The translations under genes were made by a program, and so were the position numbers. The notes under the pieces are model-generated. The model was given only the letters and a program-made list of their open reading frames with translations, was not told the DNA's origin and did no database searches. Source: an uncultured Planktomarina sp. (GTDB lineage Bacteria > Pseudomonadota > Alphaproteobacteria > Rhodobacterales > Rhodobacteraceae). From it: a stretch of DNA of 64,000 nt. Positions 14,000 through 26,515 of this stretch are shown here, one piece after another. How positions within the stretch are numbered: position 1 is the first letter of the stretch; every line of letters starts with the position of its first letter. The stretch spans positions 496,001-560,000 of the forward strand of contig CAJIZA010000003.1 in NCBI GenBank assembly GCA_905181815.1, written 5' to 3'.

Positions 14000-14671
14000 C
14001 TATGGGTACAACGTCTCGGCTTGCTCTGAAAATACCGCAACAAAGCTGCGGCGCAGGGCGAGATCAACATCAGCAAGAGTGACCGGCAGGCCAAGATCCA
14101 CAAGGGACGTCACACCGTGCTCTGCGATGCCACAGGGAACAATGCCGGAAAAATGCTCCAGATTGGGTTCAACATTGATGGAAATTCCATGAAAGCTGAT
14201 CCATTTGCGCAGGCGGATACCGATGGCCGCAATTTTATCCTCTGCCAAAGCGCCGCCGGCGTGCAGGGGCTTGTCGGGCCGTGTGACCCATACGCCGACC
14301 CGGCCGGGGCGAACCTCACCTGTGACGTTGAACTCAGCGAGGGTTTGGATGACCCAATCTTCCATTTGCCGTACAAACTTGCGTACGTCCCGCCCGCGTT
14401 TGCCAACATCAAGCAGCACATAGATCACCCTCTGGCCAGGTCCATGATAGGTGTATTGCCCGCCCCGCTGCGCTTGAAATACATCAAACCGATCCGGATC
14501 TGTAAGATCTTTGGCATTGGCGCTGGTGCCTGCGGTATAAAGCGGAGGGTGCTCTAAAAGCCAAATCGCCTCAGATGCGCGGCCGGCTAAAATATCCGCA
14601 ACCCGCGCTTCCATCCAGCGCACAGCCTCTTCATATCTCACCGGATTTTCAGAGGTGATCCATTCGACCAT
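14000..14671 (-). CDS. lipB: Octanoyl-[ACP]:protein octanoyltransferase
   Basis: LipB moves octanoyl groups from acyl carrier protein to lipoyl domains. Motifs in order are [16 protein letters not shown], the [12 protein letters not shown] loop, GVWV, the catalytic Lys in [21 protein letters not shown], and [17 protein letters not shown] with the active-site Cys. Length is 223 aa from the ATG at 14671. This start overlaps the stop of the decayed LytTR gene upstream (TGATG), so lipB was probably once coupled to it. Confidence 0.93.
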
Positions 14672-15268
14672 CAAACAATGCCCTTCGCACACAAACTCGG
14701 CATGTAGCTCCGGCTGACCGGGACATATGCGCCATCCGATAAGATTAGGCGAGCACCGTCCCCTCGGCGCTCGCCTTTGTCAATGGCATCAAAGCTGACC
14801 CAATGGGAACGGTGCACTTGCAACCTGGGGTCGGTACCACCTCGTGTAGCGCGTCAGAGAACCGCAACAGCACATGGCTGCTGCCTTGGGATGTTGTGAT
14901 CCGGGTGGAATGATCCTCGGCAGCCAGATGTTGAATGGCGCCGCGCATGTCTAATGGCAGCCGATTGAGCAGCGCTGGAGACACCGGGGTCTGTAGTGAC
15001 TGTGGCGACATACAGCCGCGCAGGCGGCGCTGATCAGAAAGCCAAGTGGAAATGTCACGGCGATCACCAACGGTCAGTAAATCAGGCCGAGACCTATCGG
15101 ACCTAGAACACGATACCCGAAGGATTGGGTCATCGTGACCAGGGCCGCGGCCAAGCCGAAGCCTCCGAAAGTTCTTGGTCTTCCCAACACCCGCCGGATG
15201 TCGCGCATTGCTTGTTGCGTTGAGCTGTTGTTGCCGAATGCCTCCGAGTGGTTCACGACATTTGACAA
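14671..15268 (-). pseudogene. Decayed membrane-anchored LytTR DNA-binding regulator
   Basis: Three reading-frame pieces together make one LytTR-type regulator. The N-terminal piece (15268 to about 15077) begins with a short soluble part and enters a hydrophobic segment, then meets an in-frame TGA. Reading past it continues hydrophobically, ending PLGFLISAACAAV. A second frame holds the start of the LytTR domain, with RLPLDMRGAIQHLAAEDH and a following TRITTSQGSSHVLLRF. Near 14820 the frame shifts again and a third frame continues [16 protein letters not shown], then [15 protein letters not shown], stopping at TGA 14673-14671 over the lipB start. One nonsense codon and at least two frameshifts indicate loss of function unless the sequence is wrong. 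Confidence 0.8.
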
Positions 15269-15323
15269 GGGTATTTATGCGGACGTCTAATGGACTTTAA
15301 TATTTAAAAACAGGAGAGAAAAG

Positions 15324-15842
15324 ATGAAATTTCAACAAATTTCTAACGCTGATCCCGTGACAGTGGTGCATATCATCTGTGGCGTCTGCGCCCTCATAAT
15401 CGGTCCCGTCGCGCTCTACAGCAAAGCGCGGCGTGCGCTGCACAGGGCGGCGGGCTACCTTTGGGTTTTCTAGATGATCTTATTGGCTGGAACGTCTTTT
15501 TTCATCGAAGGCCTGGAGGTTTTTGGACGCTTTGGGCCAATTCATTTGCTGTCAGCCTTGACTCGTTAGTTAATTTTTGAGGCGATGCGGCAGATCTATC
15601 GGGGCAATATGATCCCGCACCGGCGCATCATGGTTAATCTCTATTGGTATGGGCTGGTGGTCGTGGGACTGTTTAATCGTCTGCCGGGGTGCGTGATCAA
15701 TCGCGTTGTGTTGGGCGATGCCCGCGCTGACCTGGGTTATGCCGTGATCATATTTGGTTTGGTCGGCCTAGTGGGATGGCACCTGAATGATCACCATAAA
15801 TTTCTGGGGAGTGCTGCGGTAGCTGGAAGGCGTAAGTTTTGA
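15324..15842 (+). pseudogene. DUF2306-like membrane protein with two in-frame TAG codons
   Basis: From the ATG at 15324 (AGGAGA 7 bases upstream) one continuous frame of 173 codons reads as a DUF2306-type membrane protein. It has an N-terminal VHIICGVCALIIGPVAL helix, HRAAGYLWVF, HLLSALTR, GNMIPHRRIMVNLYWYGLVV, and NRLPGCVINRVVLG. Two amber codons, at 15471-15473 and 15567-15569, interrupt it, but the frame is otherwise kept. It is most simply a young pseudogene. The divergent neighbour, a LytTR regulator, is also broken, so the two probably formed a unit that was lost together. Confidence 0.75.
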
Positions 15843-15902
15843 GGTGGCGCAATTTTCCCTCTTGAGCCTCCGGCAGCCCTCGACTATGCAGCTGCAAACC
15901 AC

Positions 15903-15989
15903 GCGGTCGTGGCGGAATTGGTAGACGCGCAGCGTTGAGGTCGCTGTGAGGTAACACTCGTGGGGGTTCGAGTCCCCCCGACCGCACCA
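15903..15989 (+). tRNA. tRNA-Leu (anticodon GAG)
   Basis: An 87-nt class II tRNA: acceptor stem GCGGTCG (15903-15909) pairs with CGACCGC (15979-15985), the anticodon stem is CAGCG/CGCTG, the loop is TTGAGGT with anticodon GAG at 15937-15939, there is a long variable arm, the T arm is GGGGGTTCGAGTCCCCC, and CCA is encoded. It is intact although an island is integrated in its 3' part. Confidence 0.95.
15930..15989 (+). repeat. attL: 3' part of tRNA-Leu
   Basis: The left copy of the 60-bp direct repeat bounding the island runs from the anticodon stem to the CCA end and forms part of the working tRNA. The first 31 bases are identical to the right copy. Confidence 0.85.
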
Positions 15990-16045
15990 GTACTTCAGAA
16001 ATACTTATTGAAATTCCTTGGGTTATTCTATCGAGGAGGTTCATC

Positions 16046-17185
16046 GTGTCACACATCCCGTATACAATTTGCCGTTCTGGCACCTATTACTACAATCGAC
16101 GTGTGCCAATACATGCAGTTAATTCTTGTGGTCATTTCATCAGGCAGGTACTGTCGAAAGATCCACTGAAAGCTGAAGTACTCTCAAAACGTCTGAGTGA
16201 TGTACTGGAGGGTGCCTGGAGTAGTACGACAGATGCGCCACCAGTAAATATCTTTACCATTATTGAAGGCTTTCAGCCAAGACGTGTGGCTCTGTCAGAG
16301 ATAGCTGCCGAGTATCTGGCGTTGAAACAGATAGACCAAACACCACCTCGTGTAGCTTTGAGCACCTTCATATCTCTAGCTGGTGATCGAGATGTCAGCG
16401 AGTACACACGGCAAGATGCCAAGCTGTTTGTTCACCACTTGGAAATGAAGGGCAACAAGACAGCTACTATCAGGCGTAGGATCAATAGCCTCTCGGCTAT
16501 TATCAATTATGCCTATTCAGAATTGGAATTGGACAAACGTAATCCTTTCACCAGACTGTTTATCCAAAATGAAGGAGCTGATGTCTTTAAAAGGAGGACT
16601 TTCACCAATGATCAACTCAAGTGGGGCTATGACAAGGCTCTGTCATCAGGCAGCACCATCAAACTCTTCATGCCACTTCTTGGTGAGACTGGCTGCAGAC
16701 TGGCAGAGATTGTGGGGCTGAGATTGGAGGATATAAATTTGGATAATGACCTCATACATATCAGGCCTAACTCGGCTAGGAGGCTGAAGAATAAGACTAG
16801 TGAAAGAGTGGTGCCACTGGTTGGGTATGCAAAGCTGGCAATAGAACAGGCCCTTACACAGGCTGACGATGAGTGGCTGTTTCCACAATATCTCAAGGTA
16901 GGGCATTGTTATGCCACACACGCCTCTAATGCGGTTAACAAGTGGCTGAAGAAGGACTTTGGTGGACTAACGGCACATTGTCTGAGACATACCTTTAGAG
17001 ACCGCCTACGAGCTATTGAGTGCCCTACTGATATGATAGACCAGATAGGTGGCTGGAGGTTAGCTAGTAGTATTGGAACTAACTATGGGCATGGGTACTC
17101 GAGATTGCAGGTTGGGCGATGGTTGCGGTTAGTTTTAATTCCGCTAGCCTCCAGTGATGGTACCTACACCCTAGACCCTTTCTAG
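16046..17185 (+). CDS. int: Tyrosine recombinase / phage-type integrase
   Basis: The 379-aa integrase has an N-terminal arm and SAM-like domain (residues about 80-165) and a catalytic domain with Arg218 in ETGCRLAEIVGLRLED, the HxxR pair His311/Arg314 in AHCLRHTF, Trp337 in QIGGW, and the nucleophile Tyr in NYGHGYS (Tyr347 or Tyr351). It starts at GTG 16046 behind a strong GAGGAGG site, 57 bases after tRNA-Leu. It should recombine the attachment site inside that tRNA. No excisionase is recognised nearby. All catalytic residues are present, so it may be active. Confidence 0.93.
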   Translation: MSHIPYTICRSGTYYYNRRVPIHAVNSCGHFIRQVLSKDPLKAEVLSKRLSDVLEGAWSSTTDAPPVNIFTIIEGFQPRRVALSEIAAEYLALKQIDQTPPRVALSTFISLAGDRDVSEYTRQDAKLFVHHLEMKGNKTATIRRRINSLSAIINYAYSELELDKRNPFTRLFIQNEGADVFKRRTFTNDQLKWGYDKALSSGSTIKLFMPLLGETGCRLAEIVGLRLEDINLDNDLIHIRPNSARRLKNKTSERVVPLVGYAKLAIEQALTQADDEWLFPQYLKVGHCYATHASNAVNKWLKKDFGGLTAHCLRHTFRDRLRAIECPTDMIDQIGGWRLASSIGTNYGHGYSRLQVGRWLRLVLIPLASSDGTYTLDPF

Positions 17186-17310: not shown

Positions 17311-19107
17311 GTGATGATAGAGAAGCACTTGCAGAGAAAAAACATCCTTGTTCGGTCAAGTACTAGGGCAAAAATTGCCTTTTCAGCATCCCCACTCGGA
17401 TTTTTGCTCGCAGCCTGCGGTGGAGGGGGTGGCGGTGAGGCTAGTACAAATTCTACTTCGACAAACACTTCAAATAATTTTGTACACAATTCGAATGAAC
17501 TAAATTCATTTGTGGCAGAATTGGCAAGTGATTTTACCGGCATATATAGTGCTTCTGATCAGCTTTCTTCGCCGGCTTTGGATCAATCAAAATCAGAAAA
17601 TTATTTATCAGGTTATGACAACAAAACTGCGCTTACAGCGCTATCTGGCCAAAACGAAATCGATAGTCTGCTTTACACCAGCTATCAAGATTCTTCTAAA
17701 ACTGAATATTGGCAAGGCACAGATGCTGGAAATAAAATCTCCTTTAGCTTTTTTAATACTAATCTGTTGTTATTAGACGAGAATGCTTACATTGGTGGAG
17801 GCGGTAGTGGGGCTTATAATAATGGTTTTCATGAATTTAGCGATGCCCAAAAAGATGCAGTCAGAACAGCACTTCTTGAGTTTGAAAAAGTAATTAACGT
17901 AGAGTTCGTTGAAATCGCCGAAGAAAACGATCAAGTTGGTACGATTAGGTTTGGCATGAGCCAAGATGAGTTGGGAGACAACACTACGGCATTCGCCTGG
18001 GCGCCTGATGATTATTGGTCAACGGGCGGTGATGTTTGGCTTGATACCAATCATAATGGCGCAGATCTTGGAAAAGGCACGTTTGAATTTATGACCTTGA
18101 TCCATGAAATTGGGCATGCAATGGGACTGGCGCATCCACATGAAGGTGGTGCGCAAACTTTGCAATCTGAATTGGATTTCATAAACTACACCGTTATGAG
18201 TTATGAGATCCCGGATTGGGCATTTTTTGGCTCTGGATCCAATAGAGATCTTACGATTTCTGACAGTTTAATGGTCTATGATATTCAAGCTCTCCAGTCC
18301 ATGTATGGAGCAAATAATGACTATAATTCCGGAAACACCAAATATGAATTTGATCCAACAAAACCAAATTCGTTGACCATTTGGGATGGTGGAGGAGAAG
18401 ATTTACTAGATTTTTCAAATTTTAATTATCGGTGTGATATTGATCTCAATGACGGAGCATATTCCACGATCAGATATGCTGGCTGGAATCCAGATGATAA
18501 TTTTGGAATTGCATTTAACACCTTCATCGAAAATGTTTCAGGTTCTCAATCTAATGATACTATTATTGGAAACGAACTTGATAATGAAATTTCTGGTAAC
18601 AATGGAAATGACACACTCTTCGGTGGTGCCGGTAACGATGTTTTTAATTGGGCAACGGATAGTCGAGATGGCGTTGATACAATGCATGGCGGGACTGGAA
18701 ATGATACCTATGTGCTATCAAACGCCAGTGACATAGTCTTAGAATTAGCGGGAGAGGGGGTCGATACAGTATATACCCCGACTAGCTATTCTGCTCCTTC
18801 AAATGTAGAAAACGTTTTTGGGCTTGGAAATCGAGGGAGCCTTACAATTATAGGAAATAATCTTGATAATGTTCTTCGTGGCTCTGAACTAAATGACATC
18901 ATTGAAGGTGGCGGCGGTGCAGATGATTTCTTACTCTACGTTGGAATGGGAAATGATAAAGTAATAGACTTTAATTCTGATGAAGGAGACGAGGTATTAC
19001 TCGCCTATGGTCTATCAGGTTACCAATTTGCGAATACGTCTACAGGAGCCATGTACAGCTTAGAAGACGGTTCTTCTTTGGAGTTAGTGTATGAGTTTAT
19101 TGCCTAG
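17311..19107 (+). CDS. Secreted M10 (serralysin-type) zinc metalloprotease with RTX repeats
   Basis: A 598-aa extracellular protease. The zinc motif HEIGHAMGLAH (His265, Glu266, His269, His275) and the Met-turn TVMSYE (Met296) define an M10B/serralysin catalytic domain. From about residue 415, calcium-binding RTX motifs follow (for example GNNGNDTLFGGAGNDVF), and a hydrophobic C-terminus is typical of type I secretion. Unusually, the N-terminus has a hydrophobic stretch ending LLAAC followed by a run of glycines, like a lipobox at Cys36, so surface anchoring is possible. No type I secretion genes are adjacent. Codon and base use are AT-rich. Substrate unknown. Confidence 0.87.
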   Translation: MMIEKHLQRKNILVRSSTRAKIAFSASPLGFLLAACGGGGGGEASTNSTSTNTSNNFVHNSNELNSFVAELASDFTGIYSASDQLSSPALDQSKSENYLSGYDNKTALTALSGQNEIDSLLYTSYQDSSKTEYWQGTDAGNKISFSFFNTNLLLLDENAYIGGGGSGAYNNGFHEFSDAQKDAVRTALLEFEKVINVEFVEIAEENDQVGTIRFGMSQDELGDNTTAFAWAPDDYWSTGGDVWLDTNHNGADLGKGTFEFMTLIHEIGHAMGLAHPHEGGAQTLQSELDFINYTVMSYEIPDWAFFGSGSNRDLTISDSLMVYDIQALQSMYGANNDYNSGNTKYEFDPTKPNSLTIWDGGGEDLLDFSNFNYRCDIDLNDGAYSTIRYAGWNPDDNFGIAFNTFIENVSGSQSNDTIIGNELDNEISGNNGNDTLFGGAGNDVFNWATDSRDGVDTMHGGTGNDTYVLSNASDIVLELAGEGVDTVYTPTSYSAPSNVENVFGLGNRGSLTIIGNNLDNVLRGSELNDIIEGGGGADDFLLYVGMGNDKVIDFNSDEGDEVLLAYGLSGYQFANTSTGAMYSLEDGSSLELVYEFIA

Positions 19108-19116
19108 GCTCAGATC

Positions 19117-20589
19117 TCAATAAACCGCCGTCCAATCCGGCACCCAATCTTCCCATAACGGCTTGCCCTTAAATTTTCGAAACAATTCCAGCTCAGACAG
19201 ATGCCTCTGACTTGGTGGCCCGGCATAGTGATCGTGCTGAAGGTCCACAGGGTTATCAGGATGTGGCTCCTGCTCGATTACATCATAATACTCAGTGGTG
19301 TGTTCAACTACCGGGTGTTTCACTCCTGTAACCTTTTCGAAAGCAGCCTGCATTTCTTGATAAAGAAAATGATCATAGCCGAACGGCACGATATAACTGT
19401 CGTGGACCGTGAGAATTGGGCATTTATAGACGTAGGTGAATTTTTCAATCAGCTTCTCCGTGATTTGACTGTCAACATACATGAGATCAATCCCAGCTCC
19501 TGAAGCTAACTTGTGGGCAATTGGTTCGTGCTTTTGAGCAAGCTGCTGCAACATGGCTGATAGCTGTCCATCAGTCATTTTCTTTTCTGGACTGCCGGTT
19601 ACTGACTGAGACCTAAAGGCTTTGAAGGCTTTCTTTGTGTCATCTGAATTGATGGCTGTCAGCAGTAGAAGTTTGGCTGCAGCCCTAAGGTCAACATCAG
19701 GATCAATGTCATTGATGCCATGCAATTCGTAGGGATCTTCATTTACCTCAGCCCAATAGTTGATCCCCTCCTGCGCATACAAAATAACGATGTGTAGGCC
19801 CGAGAAATCTATCTCAGCTGTCATGATCCCATCGAATTGAATTTTCTTCCGGTAGTTTTTCGGACATCTTTGCCACCAACCACCATAGAACCTTCCGCCA
19901 TGATCCCATCTGGAGTTGTTAAAGATACGTCTGACCCTTTTATCCTGCTGGTTGATCTGAAGACGCATTTTCTTTTTGCCATCACCAATTGTCAGAACTG
20001 ATGTCTCAAGATCGTAAATGTCGATGTGGGTTTGCTCCAAAATTTTGATGTAATCGAGCAAGACGGATCTCATCCTCTTGGTCTCAGACGTGTCTGAGTA
20101 TTCTTGCGCATCTTTGGATTCATTCCGTAAGACGACCGGGTCCCAGTCTTCATGATGGGATATATAAAATTGATTGAACCTAGCTTTCTCAAAAAGATTT
20201 ACCAATTGATCTGAGGCCCATAGGCGAGACTGAAATCCAATACCACTTTCCCTGTCATTGAAACCTAATTGCTGACCGATCACCCCATTTGCGATCAATG
20301 CGTCAACAATACCAATGATCTTCTTACTGATGTGCAGCTCGTTATATCGAGATCTAGCTTTGTAGGCGTTATTGTCTCTGCTGAACATCAGCATCAATAC
20401 AGGGTCGGCACACCAGGCCACATAAAGATCAAGTAGGATCACCTTCACCAGCTTCTTGCTGATCCGAGAATTTCCATTAATAGATTGGAGATCAGTGAAG
20501 ACATGACCTACTAAGTCATTCACCTCAGGATATTCTGACCACCTGTGGACATCTAAAGGTCTGGCATTGGCATAGTCTATTTCTGTCAT
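19117..20589 (-). CDS. Family A / single-subunit RNA polymerase palm-like protein
   Basis: I recognise no named family, but the 490-aa protein carries polymerase palm motifs in the right order. HGGRFYGGWW (230-239) resembles the DxRGRxY element of T7-like RNA polymerases. Motif A is AEIDFSGLHIVILYA (Asp261), like DYSQIELR of Pol I. Motif B is LRAAAKLLLLTAIN with Arg302 and Lys306 spaced as in Pol I and T7 RNAP. GIDLMYVDSQ (366-375) recalls the T7 segment before motif C. Motif C is LTVHDSYIVPFG with His396-Asp397-Ser398. His266 replaces the Pol I steric-gate Glu, and Asn314 replaces the motif B Tyr. Residues 1-215 match nothing I know, and it is far shorter than T7 RNAP. The start lacks a good ribosome site. 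A replication or priming role for the island is inferred. Confidence 0.7.
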   Translation of the reverse strand: MTEIDYANARPLDVHRWSEYPEVNDLVGHVFTDLQSINGNSRISKKLVKVILLDLYVAWCADPVLMLMFSRDNNAYKARSRYNELHISKKIIGIVDALIANGVIGQQLGFNDRESGIGFQSRLWASDQLVNLFEKARFNQFYISHHEDWDPVVLRNESKDAQEYSDTSETKRMRSVLLDYIKILEQTHIDIYDLETSVLTIGDGKKKMRLQINQQDKRVRRIFNNSRWDHGGRFYGGWWQRCPKNYRKKIQFDGIMTAEIDFSGLHIVILYAQEGINYWAEVNEDPYELHGINDIDPDVDLRAAAKLLLLTAINSDDTKKAFKAFRSQSVTGSPEKKMTDGQLSAMLQQLAQKHEPIAHKLASGAGIDLMYVDSQITEKLIEKFTYVYKCPILTVHDSYIVPFGYDHFLYQEMQAAFEKVTGVKHPVVEHTTEYYDVIEQEPHPDNPVDLQHDHYAGPPSQRHLSELELFRKFKGKPLWEDWVPDWTAVY

Positions 20590-20791
20590 AATATCTCATA
20601 ATATTGTTTATTATTAATACCTTGAATAGATATAAGATATATAAATCAATAAAATAACCAGCATATTTCATACTACTATTACATTACTCAGACGTTTTTA
20701 TTCCTTGGGAGATTTTCAAAGGGCGAAATGTAGTTAACACCTTAAGTGCTGACTGCTCTGGCACTGGTCAAATATATATAACGGGTACGGG

Positions 20792-20907
20792 TGGGGTGGC
20801 CCATACGGGGTTGTGTTGAGATAGACAAAAAGTGGTTAGCGAAAAGTTTTTCTGAGCTGGGTATTCGGTGCTTGTTTGTCGCCACACATTGTGGTCCACA
20901 ATAGTGG
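20792..20907 (+). repeat. Island intergenic repeat, copy 1
   Basis: This stretch aligns along its whole length with 23903-24015 in the same orientation. Shared blocks include TGGGGTGG, AAAGTGGTTAGC, GTTTTT, CACACAT and TGGTCCACA with small gaps. It lies between the polymerase-like gene and the 48-aa membrane gene. A weaker partial relative of its left flank is near 22880-22930. Confidence 0.65.
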
Positions 20908-20916
20908 ATCACTATT
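20888..20916. promoter_or_regulatory. Two overlapping palindromes, possible operator
   Basis: ATTGTGGTCCACAAT (20888-20902, 7-bp arms around one T) overlaps by three bases with AATAGTGGATCACTATT (20900-20916, 7-bp arms around GAT). Two perfect dyads side by side at the edge of the repeat look like a protein-binding site. The binding protein is unknown. Confidence 0.45.
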
Positions 20917-20967
20917 GGGCTAAGTCATGCGGAGTTATGGCAAAGGGTTTAGTCAGAATCTAACGCT

Positions 20968-21114: not shown

Positions 21115-21316
21115 TAAAACTCTCCTTGCTCTAGTCAGCCTAAAGCTGAACTTATAAAATCTTTACCGAGTAAGAATTAGATTTTTTTGATTAAGTCAAC
21201 GAATACATATGTATACCAGATGGACGCCAAATGCCTTGGAACGTATTTTGAGTGCAAGAATTCTTTACAATGCAGTGAATTAAAGTGATTATCTATAAAA
21301 TTCGGTGGGGGCAAAA

Positions 21317-21697
21317 ATGAGATTGATTTGTGTACTTTTTATTGTTTTTCTTTCGCCAAGTGCAAATGCACAAATTAAAGAAGTTCGTCTAAAAACGCTA
21401 TTATCCATTTGCGAGGCAGCTCAATCTACCAATGATCTTGGTACAATAAAAAATATTGCTAATCAGATCAAAGATGCGCCGTTACAATCAGATCAAATAT
21501 TGGCATCAAGAATGAGGATCTGTCTTTCAGCAGCGAATGGTGGTGAAACAATAAAAATTAATGCTGAAGCCCTACTTAAATCAATCTCAGAAAAAATGTC
21601 AGCAATTGAAAGCGATTGTAATGCACTTTTGGAAATTGCTCCTAATATAGCATTAGATAATAAGACATGCAGAACAATATTTATTTCAAACAACTAG
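21317..21697 (+). CDS. Small exported protein of unknown function
   Basis: From the ATG at 21317 (GGTGGGGG just upstream) the 126-aa product starts with a signal peptide, MRLICVLFIVFLSPSANAQ, with likely cleavage after ANA. The mature part is mostly helical, with four cysteines (SICEAA, RICLSA, DCNALL, KTCRTI) that could form two disulfides. The composition is AT-rich and it belongs to the island. I do not recognise a family. Confidence 0.6.
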   Translation: MRLICVLFIVFLSPSANAQIKEVRLKTLLSICEAAQSTNDLGTIKNIANQIKDAPLQSDQILASRMRICLSAANGGETIKINAEALLKSISEKMSAIESDCNALLEIAPNIALDNKTCRTIFISNN

Positions 21698-21904: not shown

Positions 21905-22627
21905 CTAGTAATCACATTCTACAAAATTGGTTTCTAAGCACTTTATCGCCATACTATTAGCTAATGCAACTTCGTCTAGAGCCATTTCTGCAGCAAGTTC
22001 TTCTTGTTCTTTTAGTGCTAAGGCCATGCCATTCTCTGCTGATATTTGAAACCACATGTGTGCTTTGATTCTATCTTGTTGAACACCAAGGCCATTACTA
22101 TACATCGTCCCAATCATTTTTTGTGCGAAGGGATCGCCGCTTTGAGCTACTGTAGTGTACAAGTCCAAAGCTTTTTTGTAGTCTTGAGGTACTCCAGAGC
22201 CATGGTAATGTAGTATGGCTAAGCGCCACTGAGCTGGAATATAACCCTCATCTGCAGCTAGCATGTACCAATTTGCTGCTTCAACATCATCCTGATCAAA
22301 GCCTTGGCCTTGGCTGTGCATCAACCCAAGAAAAAATCTCGCAACGTTGTTGCCTTCTATTGCGAGTTCTTGCCATTGGTCAACAGCAACCTGATATTCG
22401 TTATTTTTGTACGCAGCCCATGCAATATTTAGTTTTTTCAGGACTTCTCGTTTTTCTTGTAAGGCGATCACCTTATTCATGCGCTCTTCAGAGTTTTCCA
22501 ATTTTTTAGAAGTCACTATTTTTTGCTCTGTCTCTGTTTTCTCTTCAGAGTGACTGTCAGCATGAACAACGGAAGAAAAAAATGCAAAAATGGCCGCTTG
22601 AATTATAAATTTTATCATCACTCGCAT
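21905..22627 (-). CDS. Exported Sel1-repeat (TPR-like) protein
   Basis: About 240 aa. A signal peptide (MRVMIKFIIQAAIFAFF, cleavage near VVHA) precedes a charged linker with a coiled-coil look (residues about 30-70). Sel1-like repeats follow: ARFFLGLMHSQGQGFDQDD, AQWRLAILHYHGSGVPQDY and AQKMIGTMYSNGLGVQQD, with AHMWFQISAENG in the last. Such repeats bind proteins. The partner is unknown. In the island it lies between the small exported protein and a two-domain barrel protein. An alternative TTG start at 22645 would add six residues. Confidence 0.78.
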   Translation of the reverse strand: MRVMIKFIIQAAIFAFFSSVVHADSHSEEKTETEQKIVTSKKLENSEERMNKVIALQEKREVLKKLNIAWAAYKNNEYQVAVDQWQELAIEGNNVARFFLGLMHSQGQGFDQDDVEAANWYMLAADEGYIPAQWRLAILHYHGSGVPQDYKKALDLYTTVAQSGDPFAQKMIGTMYSNGLGVQQDRIKAHMWFQISAENGMALALKEQEELAAEMALDEVALANSMAIKCLETNFVECDY

Positions 22628-23053
22628 CTTCCATTGCCTGTTCAAACCTAATGTCTGATAAGATGACCGATAGATAATACAATTTCAAAGCTAAAAATAC
22701 TCGCAAATCGATTTTAACTATTTCTAGTAAGGTTTCTGGTACCCGTTGTTTCGTATCTAGCGCATAGAGAGGTGTGATTAATCAGATCAATGCACAGTCA
22801 TCTATTAAAATATATTATCATAAAATGAATCAGGATGCTGCTGCTTACGACCAGAGGTGCCGCTAATGGTATCACTCTAATTAACACCCACTGAAATCAC
22901 CGCACCGTCATTGGTCAAACATAAATAACCAGTGTGGGTGGAGAGCCTATATGAGTTTGCTTTGACTATTTAATGTCTGCTCAATGTGTTCGCCATTATA
23001 AAAGCCAGACCGGTGAGGGGTTTTTAGCCGGTCCAGCAAAACTACATTACCGT
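22628..23053. other. Intergenic, about 430 bases, no gene seen
   Basis: AT-rich sequence with no supported gene on either strand. Around 22880-22930 a short stretch (TTAACACC, then TTGGTCAAA and ATAAATAACC) weakly resembles the left flank of the island repeat at 20735-20795. Confidence 0.4.
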
Positions 23054-23671
23054 TCACACAGCCGCTAGAATTCTGGAACTTGTCAGTCTGCCCAATTTGT
23101 GCCCAGCATCCACCAATGCCATGAAACGTTCATCAGTAATCATTTGGTCAGCTACTTCGCCCCAATGGTCCATGGAGTTAAACCGGTACACCAGACGCAC
23201 CATTTCATGGTCATTTTTGACCATGGGAACTCCAATTCCAACTTCAACATCAACTGTAGCCATCAGCTCGTCTACGGAGGGAGCAAGCTTCATAATCTCT
23301 GGAATGGCAGAACGAGGTGCGTGATAGTCCCTGTGCAAAATTACAGGCTTTATCCCTTTTGGTGCTCCGTGGATCATACGTCCAATCCAAGGGCCTTCGA
23401 TTTCGCCAGCGGGATCAGCACCTCTTTTCTGCATTAGTGCTTGATACGCTGGATCGCTACCATACGCTTGGAATGAAGCCACAGCTGATTTTAAAGTTGG
23501 GTACCAGTTTTGTAAATCAAAGCGTCCGGCGCCATCACCAGCTACCACTGAGTAAAGCCCAGATTTAGTCCCATGCTTTTCCATTACAGCCGATATTTCT
23601 TTCATGCGCTCTTTTACGACGTTTTCTTTCCCGGCATGTGGCGTAACTTCTCTGATACTTACAAACGACAT
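23054..23671 (-). CDS. Putative dimeric alpha-beta barrel protein, two domains
   Basis: The 205-aa product appears to contain two ferredoxin-like (dimeric alpha-beta barrel, NIPSNAP/ABM-like) units. The first starts MSFVSIREVTPHAGKE and includes NWYPTLKSAVASFQ with ALMQKRGADPAGEI. The second includes DVEVGIGVPMVKNDHEMV and RFNSMDHWGEVADQM. There is no signal peptide, so it is probably cytosolic. These folds act as small monooxygenases or degradation helpers, but no catalytic residue can be named. It is the last gene of the island before the right boundary. Confidence 0.55.
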   Translation of the reverse strand: MSFVSIREVTPHAGKENVVKERMKEISAVMEKHGTKSGLYSVVAGDGAGRFDLQNWYPTLKSAVASFQAYGSDPAYQALMQKRGADPAGEIEGPWIGRMIHGAPKGIKPVILHRDYHAPRSAIPEIMKLAPSVDELMATVDVEVGIGVPMVKNDHEMVRLVYRFNSMDHWGEVADQMITDERFMALVDAGHKLGRLTSSRILAAV

Positions 23672-23831: not shown

Positions 23832-23902
23832 CTTGCAAGTCTGGGTAACATCTGAGTCACTGAACTCAATGTAATTGAGCAAATAAACATAATCGGTTCT
23901 GT

Positions 23903-24015
23903 TGGGGTGGCGCATATGGGCAGCGTTGAGATTTATCCAAAGTGGTTAGCAAAGGTTTTTACTAAGCGGGGCATCCAGTGATTATTTGTTGTCACACATT
24001 TGGTCCACATCGTGG
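23903..24015 (+). repeat. Island intergenic repeat, copy 2
   Basis: The second copy of the repeat at 20792-20907, in the same orientation, ends about 110 bases before the right attachment site. The palindromes of copy 1 are only partly kept here. Confidence 0.65.
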
Positions 24016-24124
24016 CACACATCGGGATATATCGTGGTCAATTCCCGTATTGACGGGCAGTTATAATTGTGGACATCTTGGTAGATAAATTCTTTAAGTT
24101 ACTGAAAATATGTTTCTAACCGTT

Positions 24125-24184
24125 CAGCGTTGAGGTCGCTGTGAGGTAACACTCGGGAGGGTTCTAGCCCCCCCGACCCCACCA
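24125..24184 (+). repeat. attR: displaced 3' fragment of tRNA-Leu
   Basis: The right copy of the 60-bp direct repeat. It matches the tRNA at 55 of 60 positions: the first 31 are exact, and five changes lie in the variable/T-arm and acceptor part. The changes mean it is no longer usable as tRNA, as expected of the displaced half. Confidence 0.85.
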
Positions 24185-24451
24185 ATATTTTTCTTTTGTT
24201 TAGACCACCGATTGCGCGTATGGCGGCTGACGGGTCGGGCAAATCATAGCTCTTGTCAAATTGGGTGGTGGTTACGGCTCGGGTCAAACTCTGTAGTATT
24301 ATTTTATACTCTTCTATTCGATGCGCCACGAGGTATGTCGCAAAATGGCCGAATTTATTGAATGTCAGTGGGGCAATTCACATCTTAACTTGCCATAAAC
24401 CTTAAGCACTGACATATGTGAAAGAATAACACACTTATGAAAGGGAATAAT

Positions 24452-24580
24452 ATGTCTAAAATTGGATCCGTGCTTCTGGTTTGCGCGACCCTCGTTTTGT
24501 CCGCTTGCTCTGCATACAATGATGCTGGCAGCAGCGCAGTACGTACGGTTGCAGCTGAACCAACAATGAACAAAATGTAA
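24452..24580 (+). CDS. Small lipoprotein, 42 aa
   Basis: From the ATG at 24452, with AAAGGGAA 5 bases upstream, the product starts MSKIGSVLLVCATLVLSAC. This is a signal sequence with lipobox LSAC (Cys19), followed by a 23-residue mature tail. An in-frame ATG at 24437 is possible but would overlap the ribosome site. It is the first gene to the right of the island boundary. The function is unknown; short lipoproteins of this size include entericidin-like peptides, but the tail does not clearly match them. Confidence 0.6.
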   Translation: MSKIGSVLLVCATLVLSACSAYNDAGSSAVRTVAAEPTMNKM

Positions 24581-24856
24581 TAATCCAAAAGGCTAGCGCG
24601 CGCTTGCCTCTTTGGAATTACGCCTTTTAGCCCGTTTCGATGGGCTAAAATAACATTTCAAACAAAGCTCTCATCGGCGCCTTCCCCAAATTTCGCTGAG
24701 ATTGATACGTGTTTTTGACAGCCGTGACACCCAAAGATGCCCTAGTTTCCGGCCCTATGATTTAGTATCTTTTTGAACCGCCACGGGCGCACGGTGCTGC
24801 ACAAAGAAACCAACTGTTTTAGCCGATAGATTGGCTTTTCGACTGCTGATCCTTCG

Positions 24857-26515
24857 TCAACATTCGTCTGGCCGCGTCACGGTCTTGCCCTTTACAGTCC
24901 CGCGATATTTTGACAACAACTCGGCATCCACCTCGGCTCCGTCGGCCAAAAAGGGCAATATTCCGCGCCGAAGAGAGAGGCCGCGCATGGCCTTGATATC
25001 ATCATCTGATTTGGTCACCCTTTGGCTCATTCGCCGGCCCCATTTTGCGAGCTTGCCATAGAGCCGTTCAATCTCTGCTTGGTGCCCATCGCTCTTGGCC
25101 AGGTCGATAAACTCATCGGGATCGGTTTTTAGATCAAACAACATCGGGCGGAAGCCACCTTCCGCATGCATCAGTTTAAAGCGCCCGTCAAAGACCATAA
25201 ATAGGCGCGCATCGCGGGGCTCTAGACCCAGTTTCACCGCCTGCGGCGTGGCAGAATAGTCATATTCGCTGATCGCAAACGAGCGCCATTCAGGGCGTTC
25301 TCCGTGCAACCAGGGTATCAGGCTTCGGCCCTCAATGATATGATCTGGCACTTTCCCGCCAGCAGCATCGACAAATGTTGCTGCTAAATCGATGGATTCC
25401 ACCGGCGCGTCGCAGGTCGTTCCACGGGTTGGCTCTGCCGCGGAACGTGGGTCATAGATGATCATTGGAATTTTGGCAGATGCGTCGTGAAATAGGTCTT
25501 TCTCCCCAAGCCAATGGTCGCCTAAGTAATCCCCATGATCTGATGTCAACACGATCATGGTGTCTTCGAGGCTGCCGCTGTCTTCGAGATAGGTGAGCAG
25601 CCGGCCCAGCTGATCATCGCATTGCTTGATCAATCCCATATAGGCTGGGATCACCTTTTGGCGGACCTCTTCTTTTTGAAAGGCTTGAGCAATCTTATTG
25701 CCCTGATAGGCTCCAAATACTGGGTGGGGGTTTTCTTGTTCCGTCGCGTGGCGCTTGGCTGGAGGCACATGGCGGGCGTCATACATATTATGGTAGGGCG
25801 CAGGCACGATATAGGGCCAATGCGGCTTGATATAGCTGACATGGGCCATCCAAGGGGTCGCTTTGTCCCGTGTTTCCATAAATTCGATCGTCTTGCTGGT
25901 TAACCATGGCGTTTCGCTGTGCTCTTCAGCAATATTGGCTGGTTTATCGGCATTTCTGAAAATCCAACCGCTGGCAATCTCTTCGCCATCCACCCCGGCA
26001 TTGGCAAAATCCGCCCATGGGTTTTCTGATTGGTAGCCTTGGGATTTGAGATATTCATTATAGGGCGAGCGTTTTTCGTCATAAAACCCATCAGGACCAT
26101 AGGCCCAAAGCCCATCGTCCCTGATCCAAGTGTCAAAGCCGCATTCAGCCTGACGTGCTCCGATCACGCTGTCGGGACTCAACCCCAGCCGAGCCATGCC
26201 AGCAGCATCGGCTTTCATATGGGTTTTGCCGATCAGCCAGCAGTCCATGCCAGAATTGCGCAGGTGATCGCCCATGGTCATTTCGCCGACCCTTAGAGGG
26301 AAGCCGTTCCACTGTGCCCCATGGGACGAAGCGTAACGGCCGGTGTAAAAACACATGCGCGAGCCACCACAAATCGGCGACTGTACATAGGCATTGGTGA
26401 ACCTGACGCCCATGGCGGCCACGCGGTCAAAATTTGGTGTGTGCAAATGTGGGTGGCCGGCGCAGGACAGGTAGTCAAAGCGCAATTGGTCATACATGAT
26501 GAACAATATATTCAT
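24857..26515 (-). CDS. Sulfatase-family hydrolase, phosphonate monoester hydrolase-like
   Basis: The 552-aa protein is of the arylsulfatase/alkaline phosphatase superfamily and most like phosphonate monoester hydrolases: MNILFIMYDQLRFDYLSC with metal ligand Asp9, HPHLHTPNFD, and TSDHGDYLGDHWLGEKDLFHD with further metal and phosphate ligands. The nucleophile region is ICGGSRMCFYTGRY, with Cys49 at the formylglycine position. The usual CxPxR or CxAxR signature reads CGGSR here, so maturation to formylglycine by the standard enzyme is uncertain. No signal peptide is seen, consistent with a cytosolic hydrolase. Substrate unknown. Confidence 0.82.
   Translation of the reverse strand: MNILFIMYDQLRFDYLSCAGHPHLHTPNFDRVAAMGVRFTNAYVQSPICGGSRMCFYTGRYASSHGAQWNGFPLRVGEMTMGDHLRNSGMDCWLIGKTHMKADAAGMARLGLSPDSVIGARQAECGFDTWIRDDGLWAYGPDGFYDEKRSPYNEYLKSQGYQSENPWADFANAGVDGEEIASGWIFRNADKPANIAEEHSETPWLTSKTIEFMETRDKATPWMAHVSYIKPHWPYIVPAPYHNMYDARHVPPAKRHATEQENPHPVFGAYQGNKIAQAFQKEEVRQKVIPAYMGLIKQCDDQLGRLLTYLEDSGSLEDTMIVLTSDHGDYLGDHWLGEKDLFHDASAKIPMIIYDPRSAAEPTRGTTCDAPVESIDLAATFVDAAGGKVPDHIIEGRSLIPWLHGERPEWRSFAISEYDYSATPQAVKLGLEPRDARLFMVFDGRFKLMHAEGGFRPMLFDLKTDPDEFIDLAKSDGHQAEIERLYGKLAKWGRRMSQRVTKSDDDIKAMRGLSLRRGILPFLADGAEVDAELLSKYRGTVKGKTVTRPDEC

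What the first reader, a model, noticed from the sequence alone, without database searches (positions are those of the whole stretch)
19117..20589. Palm-polymerase-like gene in a tRNA-integrated island
Seen: HGGRFYGGWW, then AEIDFSGLHIVILYA (Asp261), LRAAAKLLLLTAIN (Arg302, Lys306), GIDLMYVDSQ and LTVHDSYIVPFG (Asp397), in the order and roughly the spacing of motifs A, B and C of family A DNA polymerases and T7-type RNA polymerases. Known: this fold in a 490-aa stand-alone protein without exonuclease or promoter-binding domains is unusual. Inference: a diverged single-subunit polymerase or primase-polymerase that copies or primes the island, with the first 215 residues as an unknown domain.
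Basis: partly seen in the sequence, partly recalled or inferred. Interest (0 to 1): 0.88.

Follow-up and report, generated by a model that had tools for sequence, protein, structure and literature searches.

The report
Small polymerase of a tRNA island
The gene encodes a small DNA- or RNA-copying enzyme of a known but little-studied family that rides on mobile DNA inserted into tRNA genes of marine bacteria; relatives of this island carry an odd back-to-front copy of their own insertion site that may help them multiply.

Summary
ORF 19117-20589(-), 490 aa, carries family-A palm motifs A, B and C. Asp261 and Asp397 are conserved in 77 of 77 aligned sequences, the AlphaFold model is confident (pLDDT 90.7), and Foldseek's best matches are family-A DNA polymerases (E 5e-5). 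The gene sits in an 8.2-kb island with a tyrosine integrase at tRNA-Leu(GAG), with a 66-nt att repeat and an empty site in a same-genus genome. It is not a new kind of enzyme: it fits the TV-Pol family (2008, PMC2579912) and is homologous to the phage protein modelled as divPolA2 (PMC11348598). Most likely it primes or copies the excised island. dNTP or rNTP use is open: the Pol I sugar-gate Glu and fingers Tyr are replaced by His266 (73/77) and Asn314 (77/77). A by-product looks new in the searches run. In related islands (6 of 30 regions not picked for it, all at tRNA-Gln) both ends recur inside as an inverted attP copy that splits the element into a polymerase half and an integrase half, as in the yeast 2-micron plasmid. 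The window's island lacks this.

The parts
15903..15989 (+). tRNA-Leu (GAG), integration target
   Evidence: ARAGORN
15930..15995 (+). left att repeat (tRNA 3' half)
   Evidence: 66-nt direct repeat with 24125-24190, 89%
16046..17185 (+). tyrosine integrase, 379 aa
   Evidence: Pfam Phage_integrase 3.5e-18; PHROG integrase 1.2e-37
17311..19107 (+). cargo: serralysin-like RTX metalloprotease
   Evidence: Peptidase_M10, Peptidase_M10_C, HemolysinCabind; NCBIfam Zn_serralysin 1.3e-48, below its cut-off
19117..20589 (-). TV-Pol / divPolA2-type family-A polymerase, 490 aa
19948..20589 (-). N-terminal domain, residues 1-214, no confident structural relative
   Evidence: AF2 pLDDT 88.9; Foldseek best E 0.047
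19885..19899 (-). GGRFY (residues 231-235)
   Evidence: G232 77/77, R233 74/77, Y235 74/77
19807..19809 (-). Asp261, motif A
   Evidence: 77/77; in strand 255-262 of the model
19672..19686 (-). motif B, Arg302 to Lys306
   Evidence: R302 75/77, K306 77/77; helix 301-314
19399..19401 (-). Asp397, motif C
   Evidence: 77/77; between strands 393-395 and 398-402
20726..20929 (.). direct repeat of about 205 bp, copy upstream of the polymerase gene
   Evidence: 70% to 23837-24036
21305..21697 (+). 130-aa ORF of unknown function
   Evidence: no Pfam family at E <= 0.01
21905..22645 (-). Sel1-repeat protein
   Evidence: Pfam Sel1 9.9e-25
22878..22965 (.). partial third copy of the repeat, upstream of the Sel1 gene
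   Evidence: 67% over 89 bp
23054..23671 (-). 205-aa ORF of unknown function
   Evidence: no Pfam family at E <= 0.01
23837..24036 (.). repeat copy near the right end, upstream of the 205-aa ORF
24125..24190 (+). right att repeat
   Evidence: in the empty site L231 the two flanks meet at this sequence

Best explanation
It is a TV-Pol / divPolA2-type polymerase of an integrative element in tRNA-Leu. Shown here: family membership by homology, an intact set of family-A catalytic residues, a family-A fold in prediction, a low dN/dS against one close relative, and residence in a precisely bounded island that encodes a tyrosine integrase. Inferred: the integrase excises the island as a circle; the N-terminal domain holds single-stranded or origin template; the palm joins the first nucleotides and makes a primer or short strand; the host replisome finishes the copy. 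This would keep or multiply the island while it is excised. Which nucleotides it uses is not decided.
For: All catalytic motifs are conserved. Model and fold match. Homology to AUR84708, the phage protein modelled as divPolA2 (one search hit H63, 24.7% over residues 218-422, E 7e-5; accession seen; paper section). Integrase by profile within the locus in 31 of 37 relatives with at least 7 kb on both sides, 48 of 80 overall, a few of these being fragments, against 9 integrase matches in 2.54 Mb of the own genome. In the tRNA-Gln islands the slot held by the polymerase is held in G231 by a DUF5906 protein (Pfam 1.1e-20); DUF5906 as a D5-like, primase-associated helicase domain is recalled. Iyer 2008 used the same kind of displacement to predict primase-polymerase activity. 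CcPol-MP, placed in the TV-Pol group by that paper, is a proven primase (PMC7581432 passages). In PICMI satellites deleting the primase lowers the number of circular copies (PMC10803314 passages).
Against: No activity was tested. No helicase or SSB family was found among five neighbouring genes of the island. The motif-A Glu and fingers Tyr of Pol I are not conserved. A profile of the 77 sequences finds no solved polymerase by sequence, and hhalign to two-sequence Pol I and T7-type RNAP alignments is not significant, though the motifs fall in register (E 0.36 and 0.07). Foldseek TM-scores are low (0.19-0.35 by query length in the 50 rows shown), only part of the model being matched in most. 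The integrase profile was built from these same loci, so the 31 of 37 leans high. The paralogues in phages that have their own DNA polymerase need not be replicative.
Confidence: 0.62

Rival explanations
1. It is a single-subunit RNA polymerase that transcribes the island: the N-terminal domain recognises a repeated promoter-like region and the palm makes RNA.
For: 6 of 77 sequences match Pfam RNA_pol weakly (best E 0.0013); yeast mitochondrial RNAP is among the Foldseek hits (rank 47, E 9e-3); the Pol I sugar-gate Glu is absent; three copies of one upstream region lie before the three minus-strand genes of the island. The divPolA2 authors leave this open.
Against: No T7-type N-terminal domain was recognised; Tyr639 of T7 RNAP (numbering recalled) has no counterpart, Asn314 instead; the best structural hits are DNA polymerases; the repeat could be an integrase arm or an operator.
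Confidence: 0.17
2. It is a repair or defence polymerase carried as cargo, not needed for replication of the element.
For: Phages that carry relatives also encode regular DNA polymerases, sometimes with 2-3 paralogues (several phage records list 2-3 places); related islands carry defence-like genes.
Against: No PADLOC family matches; the gene recurs in islands whose other genes differ; in G231 a DUF5906 protein takes its place.
Confidence: 0.13
3. It is a decaying remnant without function.
For: One relative (L031) has a shifted frame near its start, and partial copies are found in several relatives.
Against: The window copy is intact, with dN/dS 0.125 against L030 and all catalytic residues.
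Confidence: 0.04

Closest known systems
TV-Pol family (Iyer, Abhiman and Aravind 2008, PMC2579912; whole main text read)
   Same: 400-600 aa family-A core, two Asp, RxxxK and a conserved fingers Asp, no nuclease domain, linked to integrases in mobile elements; the species listed include Rhodobacterales, Paracoccus denitrificans, Roseovarius and Sulfitobacter.
   Different: Their N-terminal domain is predicted all-helical; the model here has helices and strands. No D5-like helicase found in the window's island.
divPolA2 of large phages (Virol J 2024, PMC11348598; passages and one section read)
   Same: Homologous by tblastn to AUR84708, the protein modelled there; palm plus a unique N-terminal domain, no exonuclease.
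   Different: Only about 21-30% identity to phage relatives in the rows listed; on tailed-phage genomes, not in tRNA islands.
PolA-SSB primases, CcPol-MP of SCC elements (PMC10061031 sections; PMC7581432 passages)
   Same: Family-A catalytic domain on an integrative element; CcPol lacks exonuclease domains.
   Different: No SSB partner or helicase operon seen here; CcPol keeps the E710 and F762 counterparts, this family has His266 and Leu310.
PICMI satellites (PMC10803314; passages read)
   Same: Small marine integrative element with integrase and a primase-type gene.
   Different: Another integration site (beside fis); no relation of the genes shown; no helper phage known here.
Pipolins (PMC7385651; search listing only)
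   Same: Integrative element with its own polymerase.
   Different: Family-B polymerase.
Yeast 2-micron plasmid (recalled; one sentence on FLP and FRT seen in PMC5495485)
   Same: For the related tRNA-Gln islands: inverted copies of a tyrosine-recombinase site split the element in two.
   Different: Bacterial, integrative; amplification not shown; absent in the window's island.
Integrase of archaeal plasmid pTN3 (PMC5495485; passages read)
   Same: A tRNA-targeting tyrosine recombinase shown to invert DNA between inverted att sites.
   Different: Chromosomal inversions between tRNA genes in archaea; no internal attP copy in the element was mentioned in the passages seen.

Membership tests
TV-Pol | protein of 400-600 aa without nuclease domain | tested here: met
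   490 aa; no Pfam family at E <= 1
TV-Pol | two metal-binding aspartates of the palm | tested here: met
   D261 and D397, 77 of 77 each
TV-Pol | fingers with conserved Asp and RxxxK | tested here: met
   D285 74/77, R302 75/77, K306 77/77
TV-Pol | beta-hairpin before the palm with a conserved Arg | tested here: inconclusive
   strands 219-223 and 231-236 with R221 and R233 74/77 each; contact with template not testable
TV-Pol | thumb of two antiparallel helices | tested here: inconclusive
   one long helix 168-185 before the palm in the model; geometry not measured
TV-Pol | linked to D5-like helicase or to resolvase, integrase or transposase | tested here: met
   integrase in the island and in 31 of 37 well-flanked relatives; no helicase family among five neighbouring genes
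TV-Pol | direct homology to a sequence named in the 2008 paper | not tested
   gi numbers could not be looked up; a Rhodobacteraceae HTCC2150 locus was found (L095)
divPolA2 | homology to the modelled representative AUR84708 | tested here: met
   tblastn E 7e-5 over residues 218-422; accession; paper
divPolA2 | palm plus N-terminal domain unlike known domains, no exonuclease | tested here: met
PolA-SSB primase (CcPol-MP) | OB-fold SSB partner and helicase in one operon | tested here: not met
   no SSB or helicase family in five neighbouring genes; an unrecognised OB fold in the two unknown ORFs was not tested by structure
PolA-SSB primase (CcPol-MP) | Glu and Phe that exclude ribonucleotides | tested here: not met
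   H266 73/77, L310 69/77 at the positions counted from motifs A and B
T7-type RNA polymerase | match to the RNA_pol family over its cut-off | tested here: not met
   0 in the window protein; 6 of 77 sequences, best E 0.0013
T7-type RNA polymerase | RNA synthesis from promoters | not testable with these tools
   needs an assay
known anti-phage defence system | match to a PADLOC family | tested here: not met
   0 at E <= 1

The most novel reading that the evidence does not exclude
Islands of this polymerase's wider group are bacterial counterparts of the yeast 2-micron plasmid. They carry an inverted full copy of their own attP inside, so the integrase can flip one half against the other during polymerase-primed replication and turn a single initiation into many tandem copies, which would suit packaging by a phage. 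All four combinations of polymerase and integrase orientation occur among the islands compared.
Probability: 0.2. Interest if true: 0.85.

Novelty: new member of a known kind. Interest (0 to 1): 0.5.

Why it matters
In the papers read I saw no measured activity for a TV-Pol with this kind of N-terminal domain, and the 2024 phage paper leaves open whether the family makes DNA or RNA. The 8.2-kb island, with one polymerase and one integrase, is a compact system for settling that. If the inverted-attP islands do amplify by inversion, a replication trick known from yeast would also exist in bacterial integrative elements.

Tried and rejected
Pfam, NCBIfam and PADLOC gave nothing for the window protein, nor did a sequence search of solved structures beyond one ribosomal-protein chance match. 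Profile-profile comparison to two-sequence Pol I and T7-type RNAP alignments was in register but not significant. A tRNA-primer-binding-site reading of the inverted tRNA 3' ends was considered and dropped when they proved to be long inverted copies of both element ends. An inverted att copy was sought in the window's island and not found: weak short pairs only among the 25 of 40 shown, two tRNA 3'-end matches, both on the plus strand, and no inverted repeat of 60 bp or more. That the polymerase itself makes the inverted repeats is disfavoured: an island without it (G231) has them too. N-terminal domain fold search: no match under E 0.001. Ten literature searches (open-licence PMC papers only) listed no paper that I recognised as describing inverted attP copies in such islands. 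For most hits only the listing was seen; two with near phrases were opened by passages: PMC5495485 (archaeal integrase inverting DNA between tRNA att sites) and PMC2297512 (tandem, not inverted, SGI1 arrays).

Full report
WHAT IS THERE. No Pfam, NCBIfam or PADLOC family matches it at E <= 1; in PHROGs it matches phrog_4756, unknown function, E 6e-50 over residues 38-425.

RELATIVES. tblastn finds 54 phage records at E <= 1 (Vibrio 36, Aeromonas 9, Pseudoalteromonas 5, Klebsiella 2, Shewanella 1, Pseudaeromonas 1) and 4 plasmid records at E <= 1. With a phage relative as query, 290 phage records match at E <= 1e-3, among them 115 Rheinheimera phages and ICP1. In bacteria, 14 of 100 genomes of the same family, own genome included, match the single sequence, and 59 of 390 genomes of the order, own included, match the profile at E <= 1e-20. 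A scan of one genome per species gave 186 related stretches, of which the best 80 were kept (L030-L109), mostly Alphaproteobacteria by their titles; 7 viral contigs were found.

POLYMERASE. In a 16-sequence alignment with three phage proteins the invariant residues include D261, R302, K306, H396 and D397. In 77 sequences, window included, D261, D397, K306, E259, R247, G232, Y287 and N314 are 77 of 77, R302 and H396 75, D285 74. AlphaFold gives pLDDT 90.7, pTM 0.89. Foldseek against solved structures ranks apicoplast DNA polymerase first (E 5.4e-5, probability 1.00), then Pol I of Bacillus, Mycobacterium, Aquifex and Taq, with yeast mitochondrial RNAP at rank 47; TM-scores are low. Against viral models the best hits are phage relatives (E 7e-22), one named DNA polymerase. 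Asp261 lies in strand 255-262 and Asp397 between strands 393-395 and 398-402, as in family A (recalled); I could not measure their distance. By counting from motifs A and B, the Pol I residues Glu710, Phe762 and Tyr766 (numbering recalled) correspond to His266 (73/77), Leu310 (69/77) and Asn314 (77/77), so sugar choice cannot be read from the sequence.

N-TERMINAL DOMAIN. Residues 1-214, modelled alone from an alignment of 69 sequences, give pLDDT 88.9. No fold match reaches E 0.001 (0 of 174); the top of the list (best E 0.047) holds winged-helix regulators, ribosomal chains and others. I regard a winged-helix-like DNA-binding role as a guess.

ISLAND. tRNA-Leu(GAG) lies at 15903-15989; its 3' half recurs at 24125-24190, 89%. 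In same-genus genome G045 the left flank (window 14017-15007 and 15002-15996, in two pieces 205 bp apart there) and the right flank (24125-25702) lie side by side with a 67-bp overlap at L231 2127-2193. So 8.2 kb was inserted at the tRNA gene. The island holds the integrase, an RTX metalloprotease, the polymerase, a Sel1 protein and two unknown ORFs. GC falls from about 0.55 to 0.40 across it. A sequence of about 205 bp occurs at 20726-20929 and 23837-24036 (70%) and partly at 22878-22965 (67%), the copies lying 137, 166 and 233 bp upstream of the starts of the polymerase, the 205-aa ORF and the Sel1 gene.

RELATED ISLANDS. Integrases occur in 48 of 80 loci and 31 of 37 with at least 7 kb on both sides, a few being fragments. 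That profile was built from these loci, so the figure leans high, but the own genome has only 9 integrase matches in 2.54 Mb. tRNA genes whose 3' end recurs in such loci include Leu, Val, Gln, Gly, Arg, Thr, Glu, Asn, Ser and Met; tRNA-Cys stands beside the integrase in other genomes.

INVERTED ATTP. In the 80 loci plus the window, 25 of 81 have inverted repeats of at least 70 bp (not all are att-related). I then took 20-39 kb around 30 polymerase matches, chosen by score and contig length, not by repeats (some cut by contig ends, and other good matches, several near contig ends, were not taken). Of these, G036, G132 and G138 are the same stretches as L077, L071 and L073, where repeats had already been seen. 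In 6 of 30 the left end (tRNA core plus arm) and the right end (arm plus core) both recur, inverted and abutting, inside the element (the criterion was widened after G263 had been missed): G036 447 bp at 100% plus 153 at 100%; G132 245 at 100% plus 353 at 96.9%; G138 464 at 98.3% plus 375 at 85%; G202 329 at 95.7% plus 317 at 92%; G244 358 at 86.9% plus 219 at 99%; G263 706 at 93.5% plus 334 at 92%. All six are at tRNA-Gln(TTG). Eleven of the 30 have tRNA-Gln by the polymerase; of the other five, G246, G073 and G113 show incomplete sets, G432 none, and G376 is cut by its contig end. A second set of 10 (8 chosen because repeats had been seen, 2 as controls without this polymerase) gave 5 more: G460 at tRNA-Arg, G468 and G469 at tRNA-Gln, G470 at tRNA-Ser (705 bp and 160 bp, both 100%) and control G231. 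Several lie on contigs of megabases, and L098, the locus behind G470, on a chromosome titled complete, so assembly artefact is unlikely there. In nine elements the tRNA-side arms agree within an element at 87-100% over 245-706 bp, while the best matches to other elements, among the four printed per arm, span at most 95 bp. So the copies are homogenised. Polymerase orientation relative to the tRNA is + in 6 and - in 5 of 11 elements (three of which show one repeat pair only), with at least 4 changes on the tree; integrase orientation is - in 7 and + in 2 of 9, with at least 2 changes (quick tree, orientations entered by hand). Control G231 has no match to the polymerase profile in its 37 kb; its slot holds a DUF5906 protein. 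Control G339 has inverted repeats but no complete set, with an adenylate-cyclase-like ORF (named by eye) in the slot. The architecture therefore follows the integrase lineage rather than the polymerase. The likeness to the 2-micron plasmid is mostly recalled, and amplification is inference. That a tRNA-targeting tyrosine recombinase can invert DNA between att sites has been shown for archaeal pTN3 (PMC5495485 passages).

LITERATURE. Iyer 2008 (PMC2579912, whole main text) described TV-Pols as family-A cores of mobile elements, listed Rhodobacterales among the hosts, and predicted primase plus polymerase activity. PMC11348598 (passages and one section) described divPolA2 and left repair or RNA synthesis open; its modelled protein AUR84708 is a homologue of the window protein. 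PMC10061031 (abstract, introduction, part 1 of the results, discussion) and PMC7581432 (passages) describe the CcPol-MP primases.

VERDICT. A sound observation and a well-argued reading of a gene whose family was already known. The new element lies next door, in the inverted-attP islands of its relatives.

Noticed in passing
G470 region: L228 15314-16018 with L229 348-1052; L229 1033-1192 with 2408-2567 (also L098): Internal inverted copy of the element's own attP, 705 bp and 160 bp at 100%, at tRNA-Ser.
   Followed up: yes
L210 15196-16755 (-): In an island with the same kind of tRNA-Gln integrase and inverted att sites, a DUF5906 protein sits where the polymerase sits in its relatives.
   Followed up: partly
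window 20726-20929, 22878-22965, 23837-24036: Dispersed repeat upstream of the three minus-strand genes of the island: shared promoter, operator or old end sequence.
   Followed up: partly
L053 14369-14800, L104 2627-3214, L021 5031-5633, L019 1462-1701: N-terminal-only copies of the polymerase in several relatives; in L053 explained by the inverted repeat reaching into the gene, elsewhere unexplained.
   Followed up: partly
L160 12459-13700, L163 71-1738, L165 4355-6454, L226 15163-16761: Cargo of related islands resembles defence genes: AIPR/AbiU, a DNA methylase, a ZorB-like protein, a Cas4-like/DUF2779 protein.
   Followed up: partly
L031 8001-9462: The copy in strain IMCC1909 has a shifted frame near its start.
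   Followed up: no
window 17311-19107: A serralysin-like RTX metalloprotease gene ends 9 bp from the convergent polymerase gene, as island cargo; the closest relative of the island is in a Planktomarina MAG (L030).
   Followed up: no
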